A program made the translations under genes and the position numbers. Of a DNA stretch of 46,847 nucleotides, positions 33,232 to 42,776 are shown piece by piece. Under the pieces are notes generated by a model. It worked only from the letters and a program-made list of their open reading frames with translations. It was not told where the DNA came from and did no database searches. How positions within the stretch are numbered: the first letter of the stretch is position 1; every line of letters starts with the position of its first letter. Origin of the DNA: an uncultured Clostridia bacterium (GTDB taxonomy: Bacteria > Bacillota > Clostridia > Oscillospirales > Ruminococcaceae); the NCBI GenBank assembly GCA_947624555.1, contig CANQKW010000011.1, forward strand, positions 1-46,847, read 5' to 3'.

Positions 33232-33891
33232 TTATATATACTTGCTGCCTTCTCTGATAGTCAAAGGACTCATTTTTTCCCGATTTTTTTCAATAAAATC
33301 AGTGACCCACTTCGGGTCGGTTTTGGAATATTCTCTCAGCGCCCAGCCGATTGCCTTGTTGATAAAAAACTCGTTGCTGCCGAAATTGAGTTTAAGAATT
33401 TTTTCAAGATTATCAGTGTTTGTTTTTTCCTTTTTATTGAGCTGATATTCGATTGCGGTACGTCTTATCCAGATATTTTCGTCTTTTGCCCAATCAAGCA
33501 TCAGTTTATCGACCTTTGGGTCATTGTCGCTGAGTTTGCCGACTACTTTGCACAGGCAGTCAATTGTGTCCCACCACGATTTAGTTGTCACATATTTTCT
33601 GATTTTCGTCATATCGCTGAAAACGATATATTGAGCCAGACAGAGCAGATAATCGTTTGCAAGATATTGAAATTCCCGGTGTTCATCGGCGTAGCATAAA
33701 TCCAAAAACGTCCAGTCAACGGCTTTTGACTTTTTTTCGTCTTTCAGGAGATCCCTGCAAAGCGATTTTCTCTTCGGCGTAGGTAAACCGTAAAATTCAA
33801 ACTGATTACGCATATACTTTTTCATTTCAAGAGCCTTTTCGCCGTCAGCCTGCGTTTCAAATATTTCCCTTATTTTTTCATATTTTGACAT
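33232..33891 (-). CDS. alkD: AlkD-like DNA alkylation repair protein
   Basis: The 219-residue protein is a HEAT-like repeat protein of the AlkC/AlkD DNA glycosylase family. Landmarks are YGLPTPKRKSLCRDL (about 33-47), TTKSWWDTIDCLC (about 102-114), the W-W-D pair and the catalytic Asp in that segment, and INKAIGWALREYSKTDP (about 180-196). AlkD removes positively charged alkylated bases such as 3- and 7-methylpurines. A TTG at 33909 is in frame but weaker. It follows the REC-GGDEF gene by 25 bp on the same strand and is probably the last gene of that operon; it converges with rimI 9 bp away. Confidence 0.9.
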   Translation of the reverse strand: MSKYEKIREIFETQADGEKALEMKKYMRNQFEFYGLPTPKRKSLCRDLLKDEKKSKAVDWTFLDLCYADEHREFQYLANDYLLCLAQYIVFSDMTKIRKYVTTKSWWDTIDCLCKVVGKLSDNDPKVDKLMLDWAKDENIWIRRTAIEYQLNKKEKTNTDNLEKILKLNFGSNEFFINKAIGWALREYSKTDPKWVTDFIEKNREKMSPLTIREGSKYI

Positions 33892-33916
33892 ACTGCGATT
33901 CCTGTGCAAATGATTT

Positions 33917-35287
33917 TTACTGATTTTTACCTTCTAATCTTGCAATTCCGTAGTCAATACAAATATTGCCTTTGGTATACAGCTTATAGAAGGTGTTTTT
34001 TACACGTTCTGCCACCATATCGCCGTTTACGGTATCCGTATTCATAAGTATCACAATTATCTGACGGTTAGAATAGCGTGTAGAGATGTCCGAACGGCGC
34101 AGCGAAGAGTAAATCGACTGCTCCAGAAGTTCCATAGCGTTTTCGGTTTCCGATGCGTCGGGATTGGCATTAGGACTTTCGCTCAACGTGAACAGCACCG
34201 TCTGCACGTCGCTGTCGCTGCGCTCGACAAAGCGGTGAATGAAGTTGTAAACGCGGTTAAAGCTTTCAAAATCAAGCTGATAAGCGCCTTTTCCGCAGTC
34301 CCCACGGTTCATCAGCTCATTGATATAATTCAAATCTACGGTCTTTTCGCCTCGTTCTCTTTCGGCGGCAAGCTTGTCGCTGAAGAAATGATAGGAGTTT
34401 TTACCGTTCTGTTTTACGTAATAAAGAGCCTTATCTGCGGCATTGTACAGCTTTGTAAACTCAATTCCGTCTCCGGGAGATAAAGCTATTCCGATAGAAA
34501 CCGACGTGTCGGTATTGAAATTGCACTCATCGATCTTCTTTACAATATCGGAGATTATTGCCGTTGCCTTTTGGCTTGCGTCCTCCTTTGACGTCATATC
34601 CTTTATGAACATAACAAATTCATCTCCGCCTATACGGCACAGGACATCTCCCTCGGAAGAGTGCGCACGCATGGTATCGGCAAACATTTTAAGCGTTTTG
34701 TCGCCTGCAATATGTCCGTAGTTGTCGTTTATGAGCTTAAAGTTATCCATATCTATCATAAACAGTGCGCCGCAGACGCCTATACGGAGCATATCATTTA
34801 CAGCGTCCTGTGTGTACTCCCTGTTCCACAATCCCGTAAGAACGTCACGGTTGGATTTGATTTTGATGTCGGATACCTCTTTAATTTTTTGCTCCAGCCT
34901 GTCAGCAAGACTTCTGCGAAGGTCGTCAAGCTCCAGTATCCTTGCAATTCTCGACAGCATAACAGCAGGCACAAACGGCTTTCTGATAAAGTCGATAGCT
35001 CCCTCGCTGAAACAGCGAGTTTCGGTTTCGGTGTCGTTTTCTCCCGTGAGGAAAATAACGGGAGTATTTTTGTGCTTTTCTATCTGACGAATACGCTTTA
35101 TAACCTCAAATCCGTTCATTTCGGGCATATTTATATCGAGGAGTATTACATCGCAGTCGCCGTTTTCAAGATACGACAAAGCCTGCTGTCCTTTTTTGAC
35201 AAGAATTGTCTTGTATTTGTCGCTCAGGACCTCTTTCGTTGTCGTAAGATTCATATTATCGTCATCTACTACGAGTATGGTTTTCAT
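33917..35287 (-). CDS. Response regulator diguanylate cyclase with extra C-terminal domain (REC-GGDEF-X)
   Basis: The 456-residue protein has a receiver (1-120) with Asp8-Asp10 and phosphoacceptor Asp51 in ILLDINMP, then an active-looking GGDEF domain (about 145-310) with RIGGDEF (218-224), MIDMDNFK (177-184), and RDVLTGLWNR. No RxxD inhibitory site precedes GGDEF. The last 125 residues (about 330-456) resemble a second, eroded GGDEF fold: LFTLSESP, RRSDISTRYSNRQIIVIL and GIARLE in the right order but with SNRQI in place of the signature. It makes c-di-GMP from GTP when phosphorylated, by family precedent. AAGGAG precedes the ATG. It follows the binding protein in the kinase operon. Confidence 0.94.
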   Translation of the reverse strand: MKTILVVDDDNMNLTTTKEVLSDKYKTILVKKGQQALSYLENGDCDVILLDINMPEMNGFEVIKRIRQIEKHKNTPVIFLTGENDTETETRCFSEGAIDFIRKPFVPAVMLSRIARILELDDLRRSLADRLEQKIKEVSDIKIKSNRDVLTGLWNREYTQDAVNDMLRIGVCGALFMIDMDNFKLINDNYGHIAGDKTLKMFADTMRAHSSEGDVLCRIGGDEFVMFIKDMTSKEDASQKATAIISDIVKKIDECNFNTDTSVSIGIALSPGDGIEFTKLYNAADKALYYVKQNGKNSYHFFSDKLAAERERGEKTVDLNYINELMNRGDCGKGAYQLDFESFNRVYNFIHRFVERSDSDVQTVLFTLSESPNANPDASETENAMELLEQSIYSSLRRSDISTRYSNRQIIVILMNTDTVNGDMVAERVKNTFYKLYTKGNICIDYGIARLEGKNQ

Positions 35288-35313: not shown

Positions 35314-36117
35314 TCAGGTGAGGACTGCGCCTTCTATGCCGTACTGCCTTGCGATTTCCGTCATCTTTCCGTCGGCTTCCGTTTCCTTTAAGAACTCATT
35401 TGCCGCAGCGGTAATATCAGACCCCTTGCGAAATCCCACGCAGATCTGCTCCTCATTCAGCGGAAATCGGTATCCCAGATCCGAAAACTCCTTGCCGTCC
35501 GCTGTATAGTATCCTGCCATAATAATATCTATAACAGCGCAGTCAGCCGTTGCGTTCATAACGCTTGAAAGTGTGTCCTTCTGAGTTTCAAAGGCGGTAT
35601 AACGGTATTTCAGTCCGCTTACGATTTCGTTTCCTGCCGAACCGTTCTCTACTGCGAACAGCAGGTGCTGACATTCGTCAATAGTCTTGTACTGATCAAT
35701 TTTATCCTTGCGCATTACCACTACCTGGGAGTTCGACATATATGCATCAGTGCAGTCTATTTCCTCGGCAAGCTCTTCCGAAAAGGTCATACCGTTCCAG
35801 ACAACGTCAATAGTGCCGTCTGTGAGAAGATCGGCTTTTTTGTTCCAGTCGATTTCGACAAATTCGGGAGCAACGCCCAATTCCTCTGCGAACAGCTTTG
35901 CAAGCTGTGCGTCAAAACCGTCCCAATCTCCGTTTTCCGTCGGAAAATCCATAGGAGCATAATCGGTAACGCCGATTTTCAGCGTTCCCTTGCTCTTTAC
36001 ATATTCAATATCGGACTGACCGTCTTTCAGCACGGATTCTGCCTTATTTCCGGCGCAGCCGCCCAGGGCAAGCGCCGCCGACGCCAAAACGAGCAGTTTC
36101 ACAAGAATTTTTTTCAT
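35314..36117 (-). CDS. Orphan amino-acid-type solute-binding lipoprotein
   Basis: The 267-residue protein has a lipoprotein signal peptide (1-20) with lipobox LALGGC and Cys21, then a type II periplasmic-binding fold of the family that binds polar amino acids (SBP_bac_3). It opens with LKIGVTDYAPMDFPTENGDWDGFDAQLAKLFAEEL (in part) and has SYSVVVMRKD-type and TADCAVID segments. No ABC permease or ATPase gene is near; it lies between a hybrid kinase and a cyclase. It is probably exported, lipid-anchored and used for sensing instead of uptake, by inference from context. AAGGAG precedes the ATG. Confidence 0.9.
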   Translation of the reverse strand: MKKILVKLLVLASAALALGGCAGNKAESVLKDGQSDIEYVKSKGTLKIGVTDYAPMDFPTENGDWDGFDAQLAKLFAEELGVAPEFVEIDWNKKADLLTDGTIDVVWNGMTFSEELAEEIDCTDAYMSNSQVVVMRKDKIDQYKTIDECQHLLFAVENGSAGNEIVSGLKYRYTAFETQKDTLSSVMNATADCAVIDIIMAGYYTADGKEFSDLGYRFPLNEEQICVGFRKGSDITAAANEFLKETEADGKMTEIARQYGIEGAVLT

Positions 36118-36128
36118 AGTTTATCTCC

Positions 36129-38792
36129 TTATTTTTCCATAAAAATCAATCCAAAGCTGTCAGGACCGCAGTTGATTGAGATAGTCGGAGAGGCTTTCTG
36201 ATAAATTACCTCGTCAAACGTCACCCGTTTTTTTACAAGCTCGGCTATTTCGTCAAGTTCCTGCGGACGCATTCCCGCATAGGTGATAAACAACAGCCGC
36301 TTATCTATTCTTGCAGGATTTCTGAGCACGGACTTTATATATTTCTTTGCAGCTCTTTTCTGTGAGCCTATAAGTATAGACCCCACGCCCATACTGCTCT
36401 TCTTCAGTGAAAGCACCGGGTGGAGCATAAATGTTTCGCAAAACGAGTTAATTCTGTGTGAAATTCTTCCCGAACGGGCAAGAAATTCTGTACTTCCCAC
36501 CACAAAGCTCGTTTTGGTATGGGATTTGAAATATTCGATCTCCGAACGGATAGTTTCCACGTCAGCGCCCTTTTGGACAAGCTTTGCCGCTCTCAGCACA
36601 ACAAGTCCCATACCGCTTGAAAGATGTCCCGAATCTATTACAGTAACATTGTCAAACACAGCCGACGCCTCTTCTGCCTTTGAAAAACCCTTGCTGACGT
36701 TTTTTGCCATTGCGATATGGATAATGTGCTGCGCTTTGGTGAGCTGTTCTGCGAAAAATGCCTCGTAATCGGCAACAGAAGGCTCTTTGGAATGTGCCTT
36801 TTTTTCCTTGCTTTGTATGTAGGGCAAAATGCCGTCCGTTTCGATTTCCTCGCCGTCCTTGAAATCGCCGCCTTCGGTCAGGACGTGATAAGGCAAAACA
36901 GCTATCTTGTACCTTTTTACAAGCTCTGCGGGAATATCGCTTACGCTGTCGGTCGTTATCATAACAAGCTGTTTTCTTCTGTGTCCGAGGACAGGACCTA
37001 CCACCTCGTCGCTAAATTCCCCTGTAAGCGTTACCAATTCTCTGGGAAGATGTCTTAAAAGCTCTGTTTCAAGCTGATTTCCGCTTACAGGTTTCAGGAG
37101 ATAACCGTCAAAGCCTGCCTGCTTATACATCTCCTGATTTTCACTTCCTGCATTAGCCGTAAGTACGACAATGGGAGTATTAACGTTCATTCCTCCCGTC
37201 TGCGAACGGAGATTATGAAGGCACTCGATACCGTCCATAACAGGCATAAGGTGATCCATAAAGATAACGTCATACCGCTTGTTTTCGGCTTTTTTCAGAC
37301 ATTCCTGACCGCTTGAGGCGGTATCGGTGTTTACCTTTGTATCCTGCAAAAGCTTTGCCGCTACCAAGAGATTGGTTTCGTTGTCGTCCACTATGAGGAC
37401 ATTTGCCCTGGGAGCCTCAAAGAGTGCCTTGTACTGCTCTCTCTTACGGGTAGAACGTCTTTTCTCAAAGTCAAGCTCGCCTATCTTGGCAACGCCCTCC
37501 GACTGCTGAGGAATGGTCACGATAAACGTCGAACCTTTTGTGTAGACGCTGTTTACCTCAATATCTCCGCCCATAAGCGCAACTAACTGCTTTACGATCG
37601 AAAGTCCGAGACCCGTACCCTCGATATAGCGGTTATTTTCCTCGTCCACACGCTTAAAAGTATCAAAAAGGTGAGGAATACTCTCTTTTTTAATGCCCAT
37701 TCCCGTATCGGAAACAGAATATACAATATCCACAATGTCGCCCTGCACCTGCTTTTGCTGAATTGACAGCGTCACAGAACCCTCTCTGGTATATTTTACG
37801 GCATTGTTAAGAATATTTATAAGTATCTGCTTTATGCGGACCTCGTCGCCCCTCAGTTTTGCCGGGACATTGTTGTCAACGTTTATATGGAACTGCAAGC
37901 CCTTTTCCTTTGCCTTTACCCATATCATATTGACAATATCCGAAAGCATAGCGCCGACATCATATGTAGTCGAAACAATGTCCATTTTACCCGACTCTAT
38001 CTTCGACATATCGAGTATATCGTTGATAAGCGACAGCAGCATTTTACTTGCGCTCTGGATATTCAAAGCGTCCTCCGCTACCTCGTCGGTCACCGCCTCG
38101 CGGATTATCATCTCGTTAAGTCCGATTATCGTATTTATAGGCGTGCGTATCTCGTGGCTCATACTTGAGAAAAAGCGGTTCTGCGCACTGTTAAGGTCCT
38201 CTATCTGCTTTTTCTGCTTTTGCGTCATCTCGTTTTCGCTTTTGTAAATCGCATTCTGGAACAAAAGCATTCCGCACGCCACCGCAGACACCAGCGTCAG
38301 CGTTGTTACCGAGTCGATATACGCCATTTCAAGCGTATGCTGAACGATAAGTTCGGGATTATTGTACGCTATGTAATAGCACACGAGAAAGACGATATAT
38401 CCTCCCGCTACCAGGAAAATCTTGACTTTTCCGCTGACAACTATCGTTGCCATAATAAATCCCAAAATAAACCAGATAGGACCGCCGCCGTAAATTCCGC
38501 CTGCCGTGATAAAATTCAGCGGAAATACGACATATACCATTATAGCCGATATGATAATAGCACCGACCTGTATTCTCTGCGTTTTTTTCGTTATAAAGAA
38601 TATGACGCTTAGAACGACAATGGAAATAGCCATTGTAACGATATTGCTTACGCTCTCGCTGAAAAAAATCTCCATAACGAGCCTCAGCGCAAGACCCACA
38701 AGTCCCATAATGGTGGTAAGCTTGAAAAGACGTTCCTGCAAAGAACGGCTATGGTCGCCTATCAGATTTTCGATATGACTTTTCAGCGACAT
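36129..38792 (-). CDS. Hybrid histidine kinase with C-terminal DegV lipid-binding domain (TM-HisKA-HATPase-REC-DegV)
   Basis: The 887-residue protein has six membrane helices (about 25-185) without a large extracellular loop, HisKA with His213 in MSHEIRTP, HATPase (about 315-430: NILNNAVKY, DTGMGI, GTGLGL), a receiver (about 463-582) with Asp513 in VIFMDHLMP and Lys567, and then residues 608-887, a full-length DegV/FakB-type domain. DegV evidence: ITTDSVSDIPAEL (612-624), KEPSVADY (669-676), TVIDSGHLSSGMGLVV (717-732), EFLARSGRIS (769-778), HPVLSLKK (791-798) and GPDSFGLIF at the end. DegV proteins bind long-chain fatty acids. The start overlaps the upstream kinase stop by one base (TAATG). 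Confidence 0.93.
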   Translation of the reverse strand: MSLKSHIENLIGDHSRSLQERLFKLTTIMGLVGLALRLVMEIFFSESVSNIVTMAISIVVLSVIFFITKKTQRIQVGAIIISAIMVYVVFPLNFITAGGIYGGGPIWFILGFIMATIVVSGKVKIFLVAGGYIVFLVCYYIAYNNPELIVQHTLEMAYIDSVTTLTLVSAVACGMLLFQNAIYKSENEMTQKQKKQIEDLNSAQNRFFSSMSHEIRTPINTIIGLNEMIIREAVTDEVAEDALNIQSASKMLLSLINDILDMSKIESGKMDIVSTTYDVGAMLSDIVNMIWVKAKEKGLQFHINVDNNVPAKLRGDEVRIKQILINILNNAVKYTREGSVTLSIQQKQVQGDIVDIVYSVSDTGMGIKKESIPHLFDTFKRVDEENNRYIEGTGLGLSIVKQLVALMGGDIEVNSVYTKGSTFIVTIPQQSEGVAKIGELDFEKRRSTRKREQYKALFEAPRANVLIVDDNETNLLVAAKLLQDTKVNTDTASSGQECLKKAENKRYDVIFMDHLMPVMDGIECLHNLRSQTGGMNVNTPIVVLTANAGSENQEMYKQAGFDGYLLKPVSGNQLETELLRHLPRELVTLTGEFSDEVVGPVLGHRRKQLVMITTDSVSDIPAELVKRYKIAVLPYHVLTEGGDFKDGEEIETDGILPYIQSKEKKAHSKEPSVADYEAFFAEQLTKAQHIIHIAMAKNVSKGFSKAEEASAVFDNVTVIDSGHLSSGMGLVVLRAAKLVQKGADVETIRSEIEYFKSHTKTSFVVGSTEFLARSGRISHRINSFCETFMLHPVLSLKKSSMGVGSILIGSQKRAAKKYIKSVLRNPARIDKRLLFITYAGMRPQELDEIAELVKKRVTFDEVIYQKASPTISINCGPDSFGLIFMEK

Positions 38793-41557
38793 TATGCTCC
38801 ACCGCCTTTCACCTGCTCAATAAGAGCGCCTGCCTTTTCGGACGCAGACTCGTACTCAAATTCCTCGACATCACGGTTTATGTCGGTCAGCATTTTCTTC
38901 ACCGATTTGCCGTTATATACCGTTTTTGAAAGCTCACTTATCAGAGTTTGCGACTTATCCGCCTCATACGTTTCAAAACATCTTTTCAGCTCCTCAAGAT
39001 AACCGATAAGCTCCTCCGACGAAATTTCCGTGCCTGCCGGTTCTTCCTCGGCATTTTCCTCTGAATTCTCTTCCGCACCTATAGCCTCTCTCATCAGCTT
39101 TACGGTATCGGCGTACTGTTTCATAAGCTTTTCGTGGTTTTCCTTGATGAAATCTCCGTTGTTTTCCTTGGAGGCAGCCTCCATTTCCTTTGCAAACTCC
39201 GAAAGCTCTTCCGCACCCATCATCTTCGAGGAGCTTTTCAGCGAGTGTACCTGTATTCTGTAGCCTGCATAGTCCTCTTTTTCGAGCAGACCGTTAAGCT
39301 CGTTCGTTCTGTTATGGAAATCAGCCACATACTTCTGCAAAAGCTTTATGTAAAAATCCTTGTCGCTGCGGCAGTATTCCAAAGCCTCTTCGACATTTAT
39401 GCCGCCTCTTCTCAGGAGAGTCAGCTCATCGGGATTTTCCTCGGCGAAATCCTGCTCTGATGATTTCGGGGCAATATCCTGCACGAGATTTTCCTTGCGT
39501 ATGTCTTTTTCGTCCACATACTGTATTCTCGTTATAGGCAGGACTTTACGCAAAACTCTTTCAAGCTCGTTTACCTCAACGGGCTTAGGCAAAAAGTCGT
39601 CAAATCCTTCTCTCAGGAACATTTCCCTTGCTCCGCTTACCGCATTTGCAGTAAATGCGATAGCCGCAAAGCTCTGCGCAGCATCGGTATTAAGCCGCCT
39701 GAGCTGTTTTAACGCCTCAACGCCGTCCATTTCGGGCATCATATGGTCGATAAACAGAATATCGAAATCCTCCCGGCTGCACATTTCGATAGCCTCCACA
39801 CCGCTTGCGGCGGTCTTTACGGACATCTGATAATCCGAGAGTATGCCCTCTGCCACCATTCTGTTCATCGGTTCGTCGTCCACTACAAGAGCCTTGACAT
39901 CGGGGCAGATCATACGCTTGCCCCTATTTTCGGACTCAGACTTTGAATTGATAAGCGTCACGACAGGGAAACAGAAGAACGGCTTTCGGATAATTTTTAT
40001 CCGATTGCTTTTCGGAGCAGGATAATTCTTCTTTGCAATAACAATGACCTGCACTGTTTCATCCAGACTTTCAAAAAACTCTCTGTCCGCTTCGTATTCC
40101 TCGTCCGCCAGCAGCAAATGAGTTATCTGATACGACGACAGCAGTTTTTCAAGGTCGCCCTTGCTGTACACCCTGTGGACCGCCACATCAAGTCCCGTGG
40201 CAAGATTGGAAATCATCTTGTCATAGAAATGACGTATCTGCGATACCTTGTACTTTTCGGGCGTAATGTAACAGCCTATGCAGAGCTTTTCGGGGTCGTC
40301 AAACCTCATTCCGGGAGCGTCGTCAGCTATTCTCTGAGGAATGCTTACCGTAACGTGCGTGCCCTCGCCGACATTACTGTCAATGTGGACAAATCCCTCC
40401 ATTGCCGATACCATTCCCAAAACTATCGGAAGACCTAATCCCAAACCGCCTGCACGGCGTTCACGTCCGCTGTTGGACTGATAGAAACGCTCCGTTATCC
40501 TTGAAAGACTTCCCGAATCCATTCCTATTCCCGTGTCTGTTACCTGAATGCACAGATTAAGTCCGTACTCTTTCGGAATGCTGTATATTCTCACATAAAC
40601 GCCGCCTGCGTCGGTAAATTTGACGGCATTATCAAGAAGATGCTTTATTACTTTCCTTATCTTTTTGCTGTCGCCGATAAGCATGGCAGGGATTTTCGGC
40701 TCAACATCGAAAATAATTTCGAGATTGTCCTTTTCCTCCGTCATACTTCTCTCTGTGATTATGTCGTTTACAAGCGAAGAAAGCATATACTGGTCATCGC
40801 TTGCTTTTATCTTTCCCGTATCAATTTCGGTATAGTCGAGGATATCCTCTATCTGCCCGAAAAGTCTGTATCCTGCCTTTTGAATCGAGAAAAGATTATC
40901 CCGTTTAGAGGAATCATTCTCGTTTTTGAGCATAACGGCAGTAAGTCCCGTAACTGCGTTTATCGGCGTACGAAGTTCGTGAGAAACGTTGGTCAAAAAG
41001 TTTTCCGTTCTGCGGTTTTCTTCCTCAAGACTTCGTATGATCTCCTCATTAAGCCTGTTGTTTTCCTTTCTGCGCTCTTTGAGCCTTCCCGTAAAATACA
41101 CCATAAGCAGGATAAAAACGCATTGTATGACAAGCAGCGCAATCGTACCCGGCGTAAAACTGATCTGCCCTCTCGAAACGAACAGTAAATTTCCCGCAAA
41201 CGTCAAAAAGTACACGACTACCGTAACGTTTACAAGCTCGTAAAACTCTACCGTGAGGAACAAAGCGCAAAGTCCCATTGCCATAAACGCCAGCGCCTCG
41301 ATATTGTCGGGACTTAGTCCGAACTGCACAAACGAGTGCATCGCCAGAGCATACCCTACCCATTTTTCAACGTTATCGGGTATTTTCGGGATAAAGCGCA
41401 TAGCCCAGCAGATAACCAGTTTTGCGACTATTTGCAGGAGCATAAATGTGTCTTTGCTGCCTGCGGCGATATATGCCCCCAACGCAACAGCGATGAACGT
41501 ATAGAAAATAAGTACCGTTGTAAACTGCGTTGAAAGCGGTTTTTTCTTTTTATTCAT
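38792..41557 (-). CDS. Hybrid histidine kinase with pseudo-receiver, receiver and HPt domain
   Basis: The 921-residue protein has about seven membrane helices (12-155) resembling a 7TM-type sensor, HisKA with His193 in VSHELRTP, HATPase (about 295-408: LLDNAVKF, DTGIGM, GLGLGL), a receiver-like segment without the phospho-Asp (about 424-535), an intact receiver (about 553-672) with Asp604 in LFIDHMMP and Lys658, and an HPt domain (about 720-810) with His771 in VHSLKSSSKM. About 100 further residues are mostly acidic and helical. This is a full intramolecular phosphorelay; the HPt can pass phosphate to separate receivers, such as those of the adjacent HD-GYP and GGDEF proteins. The HD-GYP gene is 3 bp upstream. 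Confidence 0.95.
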   Translation of the reverse strand: MNKKKKPLSTQFTTVLIFYTFIAVALGAYIAAGSKDTFMLLQIVAKLVICWAMRFIPKIPDNVEKWVGYALAMHSFVQFGLSPDNIEALAFMAMGLCALFLTVEFYELVNVTVVVYFLTFAGNLLFVSRGQISFTPGTIALLVIQCVFILLMVYFTGRLKERRKENNRLNEEIIRSLEEENRRTENFLTNVSHELRTPINAVTGLTAVMLKNENDSSKRDNLFSIQKAGYRLFGQIEDILDYTEIDTGKIKASDDQYMLSSLVNDIITERSMTEEKDNLEIIFDVEPKIPAMLIGDSKKIRKVIKHLLDNAVKFTDAGGVYVRIYSIPKEYGLNLCIQVTDTGIGMDSGSLSRITERFYQSNSGRERRAGGLGLGLPIVLGMVSAMEGFVHIDSNVGEGTHVTVSIPQRIADDAPGMRFDDPEKLCIGCYITPEKYKVSQIRHFYDKMISNLATGLDVAVHRVYSKGDLEKLLSSYQITHLLLADEEYEADREFFESLDETVQVIVIAKKNYPAPKSNRIKIIRKPFFCFPVVTLINSKSESENRGKRMICPDVKALVVDDEPMNRMVAEGILSDYQMSVKTAASGVEAIEMCSREDFDILFIDHMMPEMDGVEALKQLRRLNTDAAQSFAAIAFTANAVSGAREMFLREGFDDFLPKPVEVNELERVLRKVLPITRIQYVDEKDIRKENLVQDIAPKSSEQDFAEENPDELTLLRRGGINVEEALEYCRSDKDFYIKLLQKYVADFHNRTNELNGLLEKEDYAGYRIQVHSLKSSSKMMGAEELSEFAKEMEAASKENNGDFIKENHEKLMKQYADTVKLMREAIGAEENSEENAEEEPAGTEISSEELIGYLEELKRCFETYEADKSQTLISELSKTVYNGKSVKKMLTDINRDVEEFEYESASEKAGALIEQVKGGGA

Positions 41558-41560
41558 AAA

Positions 41561-42595
41561 TTACTTCTCTCTCATATCGTAATCAGTGTCTGCGTCTATC
41601 ATAGCAAGCATAATGTCCGCAAAGTACGGGTCAAACTGAGTGCCCTTGCCCTTTGCGACCTCTTCGCGCACCTGCTGCTGCGGAATAACGCCTCTGTACG
41701 CTCTTTTGCTGCTCATAGCGTCATAAGCGTCCGCAACAGCGATGATCCTCGCCTCTACAGGGATATTTTCGCCCGAAAGTCCGTCGGGATAGCCTTTGCC
41801 GTCATAACGCTCGTGGTGAAATTTTGCTCCCGTGACAAGTCTCGGAAATTCCTCTATTCGCTGAAGTATCTTTTCGCCCATAATGGGGTGGGTCTTTATT
41901 ATCGCATATTCCTCATCGTTAAGCCGTGAAGGCTTGTTGATTATAGCGTCGGGAATACCGATTTTTCCCACATCGTGGAGCAGTCCGATAAGATAAATGT
42001 CATCCTGCTCCTGTTCGGAAAATCCTGCAAGCTGCGCAATTCTTCGGGAATATTCGGCAACTCTTGCCGAATGACCGTTCGTATATGTATCCTTGGCGTC
42101 CACAGCGCCCGAAAGCGCCATTACTATCTGCACGGTCATCTTTTCGACCTTCCGCTGTTGATTTATGACCTCCCGTGTCTTTACCTCGACCTCGTGTGCA
42201 AGGTCTGCCTGAAGCCTGGTAAGTTCCACGATATGGTTTATTCTCAGCAAAAGCACCTCTGTCATAAACGGTTTGGTCACAAAGTCCATAGCTCCCGACC
42301 TCAGACAGCGTGTTTCGGTGTCGTTGTCGTTATCTGCGGTAAGGAAAATAACAGGAATATCAAAGGTGTTTTCGTTGGCTCTTATGCGCTCAAGCGTTTC
42401 AAAACCGTCCATTTCGGGCATATGTACATCAAGAAGAATAATATCGGGTCTGTTGCTCGCAAGGAATTTAAGTGCAGAACTGCCCGATTTCACACAGCTC
42501 ACACGCATTCCTTCGGCACTCAGTATACGGTTTGCTACTGTAAGGTTAGCCACATCATCATCAACCACAAGTATCCAGTAATCCAAAATTCTCAC
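41561..42595 (-). CDS. Response regulator c-di-GMP phosphodiesterase (REC-HD-GYP)
   Basis: The 344-residue protein has a receiver (5-125) with Asp12-Asp14, phosphoacceptor Asp56 in IILLDVHMP and Lys108, a helical linker (about 127-160), and an HD-GYP domain (about 160-335) with LLHDVGKIGIPD (205-216), HHERYDGKGYPDGL (260-273) and VADAYDAMSSKRAY. All hallmarks are present, so hydrolysis of c-di-GMP (to pGpG or GMP) is expected. The start is GTG at 42595 or TTG at 42586; neither has ideal spacing from the AAGGG site. It is the first gene of the leftward signalling operon. Confidence 0.94.
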   Translation of the reverse strand: MRILDYWILVVDDDVANLTVANRILSAEGMRVSCVKSGSSALKFLASNRPDIILLDVHMPEMDGFETLERIRANENTFDIPVIFLTADNDNDTETRCLRSGAMDFVTKPFMTEVLLLRINHIVELTRLQADLAHEVEVKTREVINQQRKVEKMTVQIVMALSGAVDAKDTYTNGHSARVAEYSRRIAQLAGFSEQEQDDIYLIGLLHDVGKIGIPDAIINKPSRLNDEEYAIIKTHPIMGEKILQRIEEFPRLVTGAKFHHERYDGKGYPDGLSGENIPVEARIIAVADAYDAMSSKRAYRGVIPQQQVREEVAKGKGTQFDPYFADIMLAMIDADTDYDMREK

Positions 42596-42661: not shown

Positions 42662-42690
42662 ATTGTACCTGAAAAAGCGTCTGTTGTCAA
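42662..42690 (-). promoter_or_regulatory. Promoter of the signalling operon
   Basis: On the reverse strand TTGACA (42685-42690) and TACAAT (42662-42667) are 17 bp apart, 67 bp before the HD-GYP start. Confidence 0.75.
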
Positions 42691-42735
42691 GAGAAAAGCG
42701 AAAATTATTTTCGATTTGCAGATAAAAACGGAAAA

Positions 42736-42758
42736 TGCGGAGCGTTTTTCGCTCCGCA
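42736..42758 (-). terminator. Terminator of the metal operon
   Basis: TGCGGAGCG (42736-42744) pairs with CGCTCCGCA (42750-42758), loop TTTTT; on the reverse strand T-rich sequence follows. It is 19 bp after the ATPase stop, insulating the metal operon from the signalling operon. Confidence 0.8.
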
Positions 42759-42776
42759 CAGAACCATTGTATTCGA

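What the first reader, a model, noticed from the sequence alone, without database searches (positions are those of the whole stretch)
36129..38792. A hybrid histidine kinase fused to a full-length DegV fatty-acid-binding domain
Residues 608-887 form a complete DegV-type domain after the receiver of a membrane hybrid kinase. Established knowledge: free DegV/FakB proteins bind fatty acids and hand them to a fatty acid kinase. A fusion to a kinase and receiver would make the lipid-bound state a signal for phosphotransfer. The first binding loop differs from the usual (KEPS for TSQPS, VSKGF for LSGTY), so ligand preference may have changed. I do not recall this architecture as described.
Basis: partly seen in the sequence, partly recalled or inferred. 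Interest (0 to 1): 0.78.

Follow-up and report, generated by a model that had tools for sequence, protein, structure and literature searches.

The report
Hybrid kinase carrying fatty-acid-binding-type domain
A membrane signalling kinase of gut Clostridia ends in a domain of the family that normally carries fatty acids to an enzyme; it is conserved in many relatives beside a partner kinase, and often beside genes for the messenger c-di-GMP, which suggests a lipid-responsive switch.

The parts
36129..38792 (-). hybrid histidine kinase with C-terminal DegV domain, 887 aa
   Evidence: ORF, Pfam
38232..38741 (-). membrane part, residues 18-187, six predicted helices
   Evidence: hydropathy, low-confidence model
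37989..38186 (-). HisKA, phospho-acceptor His213
   Evidence: Pfam; His in 47 of 48 fusions, the remaining row has a gap there
37503..37850 (-). HATPase_c
   Evidence: Pfam; N330, D362, L395 in 48 of 48
37062..37400 (-). receiver, phospho-acceptor Asp513
   Evidence: Pfam; D469, D513, T545, K567 in 48 of 48
36135..36962 (-). DegV domain, residues 611-886
   Evidence: Pfam, fold
38792..41557 (-). partner hybrid kinase: membrane part-HisKA-HATPase_c-REC-Hpt, 921 aa, overlaps the finding by one base
   Evidence: Pfam; catalytic residues in 40 of 40 aligned partner rows, 38 distinct
41561..42595 (-). receiver with HD-GYP-type HD domain (probable c-di-GMP phosphodiesterase)
   Evidence: Pfam Response_reg and HD_5; NCBIfam c-di-GMP phosphodiesterase model matched below its cut-off
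35314..36117 (-). family 3 solute-binding protein with a lipobox-like LGGC near the N-terminus (by eye)
   Evidence: Pfam; directly downstream of the fusion in 13 of 47 loci
33917..35287 (-). receiver with GGDEF domain (probable diguanylate cyclase), two GGDEF stretches
   Evidence: Pfam
42662..42690 (-). promoter-like site ahead of the five genes, 11 of 12 consensus bases
   Evidence: pattern scan; 20 promoter-like sites in the region against 14.9 expected, so not proof of function
42735..42759 (-). terminator-like hairpin behind the preceding P-type ATPase gene
   Evidence: pattern scan

Best explanation
The protein is a membrane hybrid kinase whose DegV domain has turned from a fatty-acid delivery protein into a regulatory, probably lipid-sensing, domain. 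The DegV domain would take a fatty acid or similar lipid from the inner leaflet or cytosol. Being loaded or empty would shift the kinase/phosphatase balance of the attached HK-REC core. Phosphoryl groups would pass from His213 to Asp513, then to the Hpt of the neighbouring HK-REC-Hpt protein, and from there to REC-HD-GYP and REC-GGDEF, so that lipid status sets c-di-GMP. Shown: domains, intact phosphotransfer residues, conserved gene order, a separate DegV group next to these kinases, and loss of the FakA-docking residue. Inferred: the ligand, the direction of control, the relay partners and the output.
For: Domains. Phosphotransfer residues kept in fusions (47 or 48 of 48 rows, the one miss a gap) and in 40 of 40 aligned partner rows, 38 of them distinct. 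A complete HK-REC-Hpt frame directly upstream in 38 of 48 analysed fusion genes; the other ten are told one by one in the full report. REC-GGDEF or REC-HD-GYP in the fetched flanks of 29 of 47 loci. L150 carries HK-REC-DegV-Hpt in one frame. The sister free DegV proteins have REC with Hpt (12) or REC with HK (2) next to them in 14 of 14 loci; other free DegV in 0 of 44 loci (L098, which does have a REC piece, and the contig-cut L093 set aside). R202 position: Arg in 2 of 48 fusions, 4 of 14 sister free, 45 of 45 other free; H266 position: His in 2 of 48, 0 of 14, 40 of 45. The residue of FakB1 equivalent to R202, Arg205, is called the key residue for FakA binding (PMC8892158, passages). FakA and a free DegV are present in the same genome, so the fusion is not its only possible FakB. 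Precedent: free fatty acids act as negative regulators of the SaeRS two-component system in S. aureus (PMC5539427, abstract).
Against: No ligand was shown. S93 is kept in only 29 of 48 and R170 in 28 of 48 fusions, so some members may bind nothing or another ligand. The H266 change is not peculiar to this group: 5 of 45 other free DegV lack His there, and the genome's own free DegV has Asn. Two FakB1 tunnel alanines (121, 158) align by eye with Leu724 and Thr761, which could narrow the pocket. A domain behind a receiver is often an output, not an input (general knowledge). 18 of 47 loci show no GGDEF or HD-GYP gene in the fetched flank, some of them short stretches, so c-di-GMP is not shown to be a general output. 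The full-length model is too uncertain (mean pLDDT 65.6, pTM 0.36) to say how the domains meet.
Confidence: 0.5

Rival explanations
1. The DegV domain is an output: phosphorylation of the receiver controls whether the domain captures or releases fatty acid at the membrane.
For: It directly follows the receiver, the usual place of an output domain. The residues that align with the latch Arg173 and Ser171 of FakB1 are present in the window protein (R776 and S774).
Against: In L150 an Hpt follows the DegV domain. In the sister group DegV is a separate protein beside the kinase.
Confidence: 0.2
2. The DegV domain no longer binds a ligand and serves as a dimerisation or docking surface for the partner kinase or another protein.
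For: Polar pocket residues drift in many fusions: S93 kept in 29 of 48, R170 in 28 of 48. Tight genetic linkage to HK-REC-Hpt.
Against: In the window's own group these places are invariant over ten sequences (S61, S93, R169 of alignment A1). T61 keeps a hydroxyl in 44 of 48.
Confidence: 0.18
3. The fusion is simply a FakB: it feeds fatty acid to FakA while tied to the membrane.
For: Same fold; FakA present in the genome; S668, S700 and R776 kept.
Against: FakA-docking Arg lost in 46 of 48, network His lost in 46 of 48; linked to phosphorelay genes.
Confidence: 0.04
4. Assembly or sequencing artefact joining two genes.
For: Three of 48 relatives are split into two frames (L038, L134, L153).
Against: 45 of 48 are uninterrupted, over at least four families.
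Confidence: 0.01

Closest known systems
FakB / DegV fatty-acid-binding proteins (Pfam PF02645; S. aureus FakB2, PDB 4x9x)
   Same: Whole fold and domain length; hydroxyls at T61 and S93 and Arg at R170 in the window protein
   Different: Fused to a membrane hybrid kinase; R202 (FakA docking) is Ile808, H266 is Asn874; sits among phosphorelay genes
Hybrid histidine kinases with receiver (TorS, ArcB, BarA, LuxQ type)
   Same: HisKA-HATPase_c-REC core with the catalytic residues in place
   Different: None of the 24 kinase models shown reaches its cut-off; a DegV domain, not an Hpt, follows the receiver
DhaQ and DhaK-DhaR of the dihydroxyacetone kinase systems
   Different: Different ligand, no histidine kinase fusion, transcription factor partner (recalled)
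SaeRS control by fatty acids in S. aureus (PMC5539427, abstract)
   Same: A two-component system responding to free fatty acid, with Fak proteins involved
   Different: There the effect of Fak is indirect, through the fatty acid pool; here a DegV domain is part of the kinase

Membership tests
DegV family (PF02645) | Match to the family model over its cut-off | tested here: met
   162.7 bits, cut-off 27, residues 611-886; TIGR00762 174.3 bits, cut-off 99.7
DegV family (PF02645) | DegV/EDD fold | tested here: met
FakB (fatty acid kinase partner) | Carboxylate-binding hydroxyls T61 and S93 (FakB2 numbering recalled; it fits 4x9x with an offset of 20) | tested here: met
   S668 (Thr to Ser) and S700 in the window protein
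FakB (fatty acid kinase partner) | Catalytic/latch Arg170 | tested here: met
   R776 in the window protein; only 28 of 48 fusions keep Arg
FakB (fatty acid kinase partner) | FakA-docking Arg202 | tested here: not met
   I808; Arg in only 2 of 48 fusions against 45 of 45 other free DegV
FakB (fatty acid kinase partner) | Network His266 | tested here: not met
   N874; His in 2 of 48 fusions, 40 of 45 other free DegV
FakB (fatty acid kinase partner) | Bound fatty acid | not testable with these tools
   needs purified protein and mass spectrometry
Hybrid histidine kinase | H, N and G boxes and receiver D, T, K | tested here: met
   H213, N330, D362, L395, D469, D513, T545, K567
TorS, BarA, ArcB, LuxQ and other named hybrid kinases | Score over the curated cut-off of the model | tested here: not met
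   best TorS 317.9 bits against 676.5; none of the 24 kinase models shown reaches its cut-off (25 of 143 families shown)

The most novel reading that the evidence does not exclude
A group of DegV proteins in Clostridia, free or fused to a kinase, has left fatty-acid delivery and become the lipid sensor of a distinct class of phosphorelays, so that the free fatty acids of the cell are read directly by a histidine kinase system and turned into c-di-GMP or receiver output.
Probability: 0.42. Interest if true: 0.8.

Novelty: new variant of a known kind. Interest (0 to 1): 0.64.

Why it matters
To my knowledge (recalled) little is known of DegV proteins outside the Fak system. A group that has mostly lost the FakA-docking residue yet travels with histidine kinases gives a concrete, testable second function. 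If the domain senses lipid, this would be an intracellular fatty-acid-sensing two-component system in gut bacteria, linking lipid supply to c-di-GMP behaviour such as attachment or motility (the last step is general knowledge, not shown here).

Tried and rejected
Frameshift or assembly join: rejected because 45 of 48 relatives are uninterrupted. Ordinary FakB role: rejected as main reading because of residues R202 and H266. A known named kinase family: none of the 24 kinase models shown reaches its cut-off (118 further families were not shown). Full-length structure for domain contacts: model too weak. Spread beyond the class: in 398 genomes of the phylum, at E up to 1e-38, the only frames over 400 aa under a DegV hit were those of the own genome and two of the same class; this does not exclude more distant cases. 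Papers: DegV with histidine kinase and fusion (6 papers, listing; passages of PMC12688256, where DegV is one gene of a deleted region), DegV with GGDEF and histidine kinase (1 paper, listing), 'DegV domain' with response regulator (5 papers, listing), FakB with fatty acid, sensor histidine kinase and c-di-GMP (none). Nothing that I saw of these describes the architecture; the papers themselves were not read through. (listing) was to find the FakB residue roles; passages of PMC9136124 and PMC11617999 gave none of the residues, those of PMC8892158 did for FakB1. The five FakB2 residue numbers and roles are recalled from a 2016 paper that was not seen; only its title shows, as the 4x9x entry. That B. 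subtilis degV lies beside degS-degU is recalled; one search was run to back it and only listings were seen, so it is not used. L165 (580-aa frame with DegV) has no kinase domain hit and was left aside.

Rows dropped: of 50 distinct fusion genes found, two (G481 contig 40, G395 contig 386) were not fetched with flanks. One more, G294 (L093), is cut at a contig end and not among the 50. L116 and L142 duplicate L035 and L037 and were removed before the counts of 48 genes and 47 loci, and the 40 partner rows (38 distinct), still contain them. L098, a free frame near a contig end that groups inside the fusions and has a REC piece upstream, and L093 were left out of the 45 'other free' proteins (44 loci, since L021 holds two); itself printed 1 of 46 with both in. 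Several of the 44 loci are cut short by contig ends. The free DegV compared were top hits, not a random sample.

Full report

Operon. On the same strand lie REC-HD-GYP (41561-42595), HK-REC-Hpt (38792-41557, sharing one base with the finding), the finding, a family 3 solute-binding protein (35314-36117) and REC-GGDEF (33917-35287), with gaps of 3, 11 and 26 bases besides the overlap. A promoter-like site with 11 of 12 consensus bases lies ahead of the first gene, after a terminator-like hairpin (pattern matches only).

Spread. Frames of this architecture were seen in 7 of 43 genomes of the genus, at least 25 of 396 of the family (list cut, so a lower bound), 6 of 394 of the order and 9 of 391 of the class (E up to 1e-45), the own genome counted each time and the samples overlapping, plus eight named MAG contigs (some of them the same contigs as G-handle ones, by length; the isolate name 'Lapin' suggests rabbit). 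I count 50 distinct genes; those in G handles fall in families f1, f24, f52 and f67. 48 were analysed. In 398 genomes of the phylum no case outside the class came up at E up to 1e-38.

Gene neighbours. Of the 48 genes, 38 have a complete HK-REC-Hpt frame directly upstream. The other ten: L038 and L134 are split and have it ahead of their first piece; L036 and L154 show only its end before the contig stops; L039's second copy follows a first fusion copy that has it; L150 has HK-REC upstream and carries the Hpt itself; L153, split, has HK-REC upstream and a REC-Hpt frame beyond; L034 and L138 start at a contig end; L145 has a receiver upstream and, before it, a piece that by eye looks like the end of a partner. 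GGDEF or HD-GYP genes lie in the fetched flanks of 29 of 47 loci; of the other 18, 13 show one or two frames with a receiver hit only and 5 show neither. The solute-binding gene is directly downstream in 13 of 47 loci, the window's nearer relatives.

Free relatives. In a tree of 109 DegV domains (midpoint root, several long branches flagged by the program) the 48 fusions and 15 free DegV form one supported group (100/99). Fourteen of the free ones form the sister (100/95) of a branch (98/96) with all fusions and one free frame, L098, which lies near a contig end; because of it the label needs two changes, so one origin of the fusion is not shown. Of the 14 sister loci, 12 have REC and Hpt and 2 have REC and HK in a neighbouring frame. 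Nine of them were read more widely, and 9 of 9 have HK-REC-Hpt directly upstream and a GGDEF or HD-GYP gene in the stretch (the tenth locus fetched, L165, is not of this group and has no such gene). Among free DegV outside the group, 0 of 44 loci have such neighbours in the held flanks, up to 1.5 kb (see rows dropped). So DegV of this group travels with these kinases whether fused or not.

Residues. By the alignment, the five FakB residues (T61, S93, R170, R202, H266 of FakB2; numbers and roles recalled, an offset of 20 fits all five) correspond to S668, S700, R776, I808 and N874 (the R202 place lies near a gap, and was taken from the multiple alignments). Counts over 48 fusions, 14 sister free and 45 other free: T61 keeps Ser or Thr in 44, 14, 42; S93 is Ser in 29, 14, 45; R170 is Arg in 28, 6, 45; R202 is Arg in 2, 4, 45; H266 is His in 2, 0, 40. 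In FakB1 the equivalent of R202 docks FakA and the equivalent of H266 joins the hydrogen-bond network on the fatty acid carboxylate (PMC8892158, passages). The pattern is loss of FakA docking with partial upkeep of a ligand site. Within the window's own group the serines and the Arg are invariant in ten sequences. Two tunnel alanines of FakB1 align with Leu724 and Thr761 (read by eye), so a different lipid is possible.

Kinase. H213, N330, D362, L395, D469, D513, T545 and K567 are present in 48 of 48 fusion rows, except H213 in 47 with one gap, and the partner's H, N, D, L, receiver and Hpt residues in 40 of 40 aligned rows, 38 distinct. Both proteins therefore look competent for a relay; which feeds which is not known.

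How it most likely works: given under best explanation. The same genome holds FakA and a free DegV with the docking Arg, so ordinary fatty-acid activation need not rely on this protein; that free DegV itself has His at T61 and Asn at H266, so it is not a textbook FakB either. The DhaQ precedent (role recalled) shows that this superfamily can turn a substrate-binding subunit into a regulator.

Novelty. Hybrid kinases and DegV domains are both well known; the joining, the partner operon and the DegV group without FakA docking did not appear in four aimed searches of an open-access library. Domain databases may list the architecture automatically; I could not check. Hence a new variant of a known kind.

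Noticed in passing
L176:3221-6342 (own genome, contig C22): The free DegV of the same genome is followed by genes that look by eye like the diadenylate cyclase CdaA and its regulator CdaR, so this DegV may be tied to c-di-AMP; its T61 position is His.
   Followed up: no
L175:644-916 (own genome, contig C10): A 90-aa frame resembles residues about 205-301 of FakA and lies behind a gene that looks by eye like nadC; similar weak hits occur in most of the 43 genomes of the genus.
   Followed up: partly
L039:5249-10640: Two tandem copies of the HK-REC-DegV gene.
   Followed up: no
L150:5672-9106: HK-REC-DegV-Hpt in one 1145-aa frame.
   Followed up: yes
L038, L134, L153: The fusion gene is split into two frames in these three loci: decay or sequencing error.
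   Followed up: no
window 35314-36117: A solute-binding lipoprotein follows the kinase in 13 of 47 loci, those nearer the window; it may be a second, external sensor for the kinase pair.
   Followed up: partly
window 33232-33909: A DNA alkylation repair gene lies 7 bases behind REC-GGDEF on the same strand and may share the transcript.
   Followed up: no
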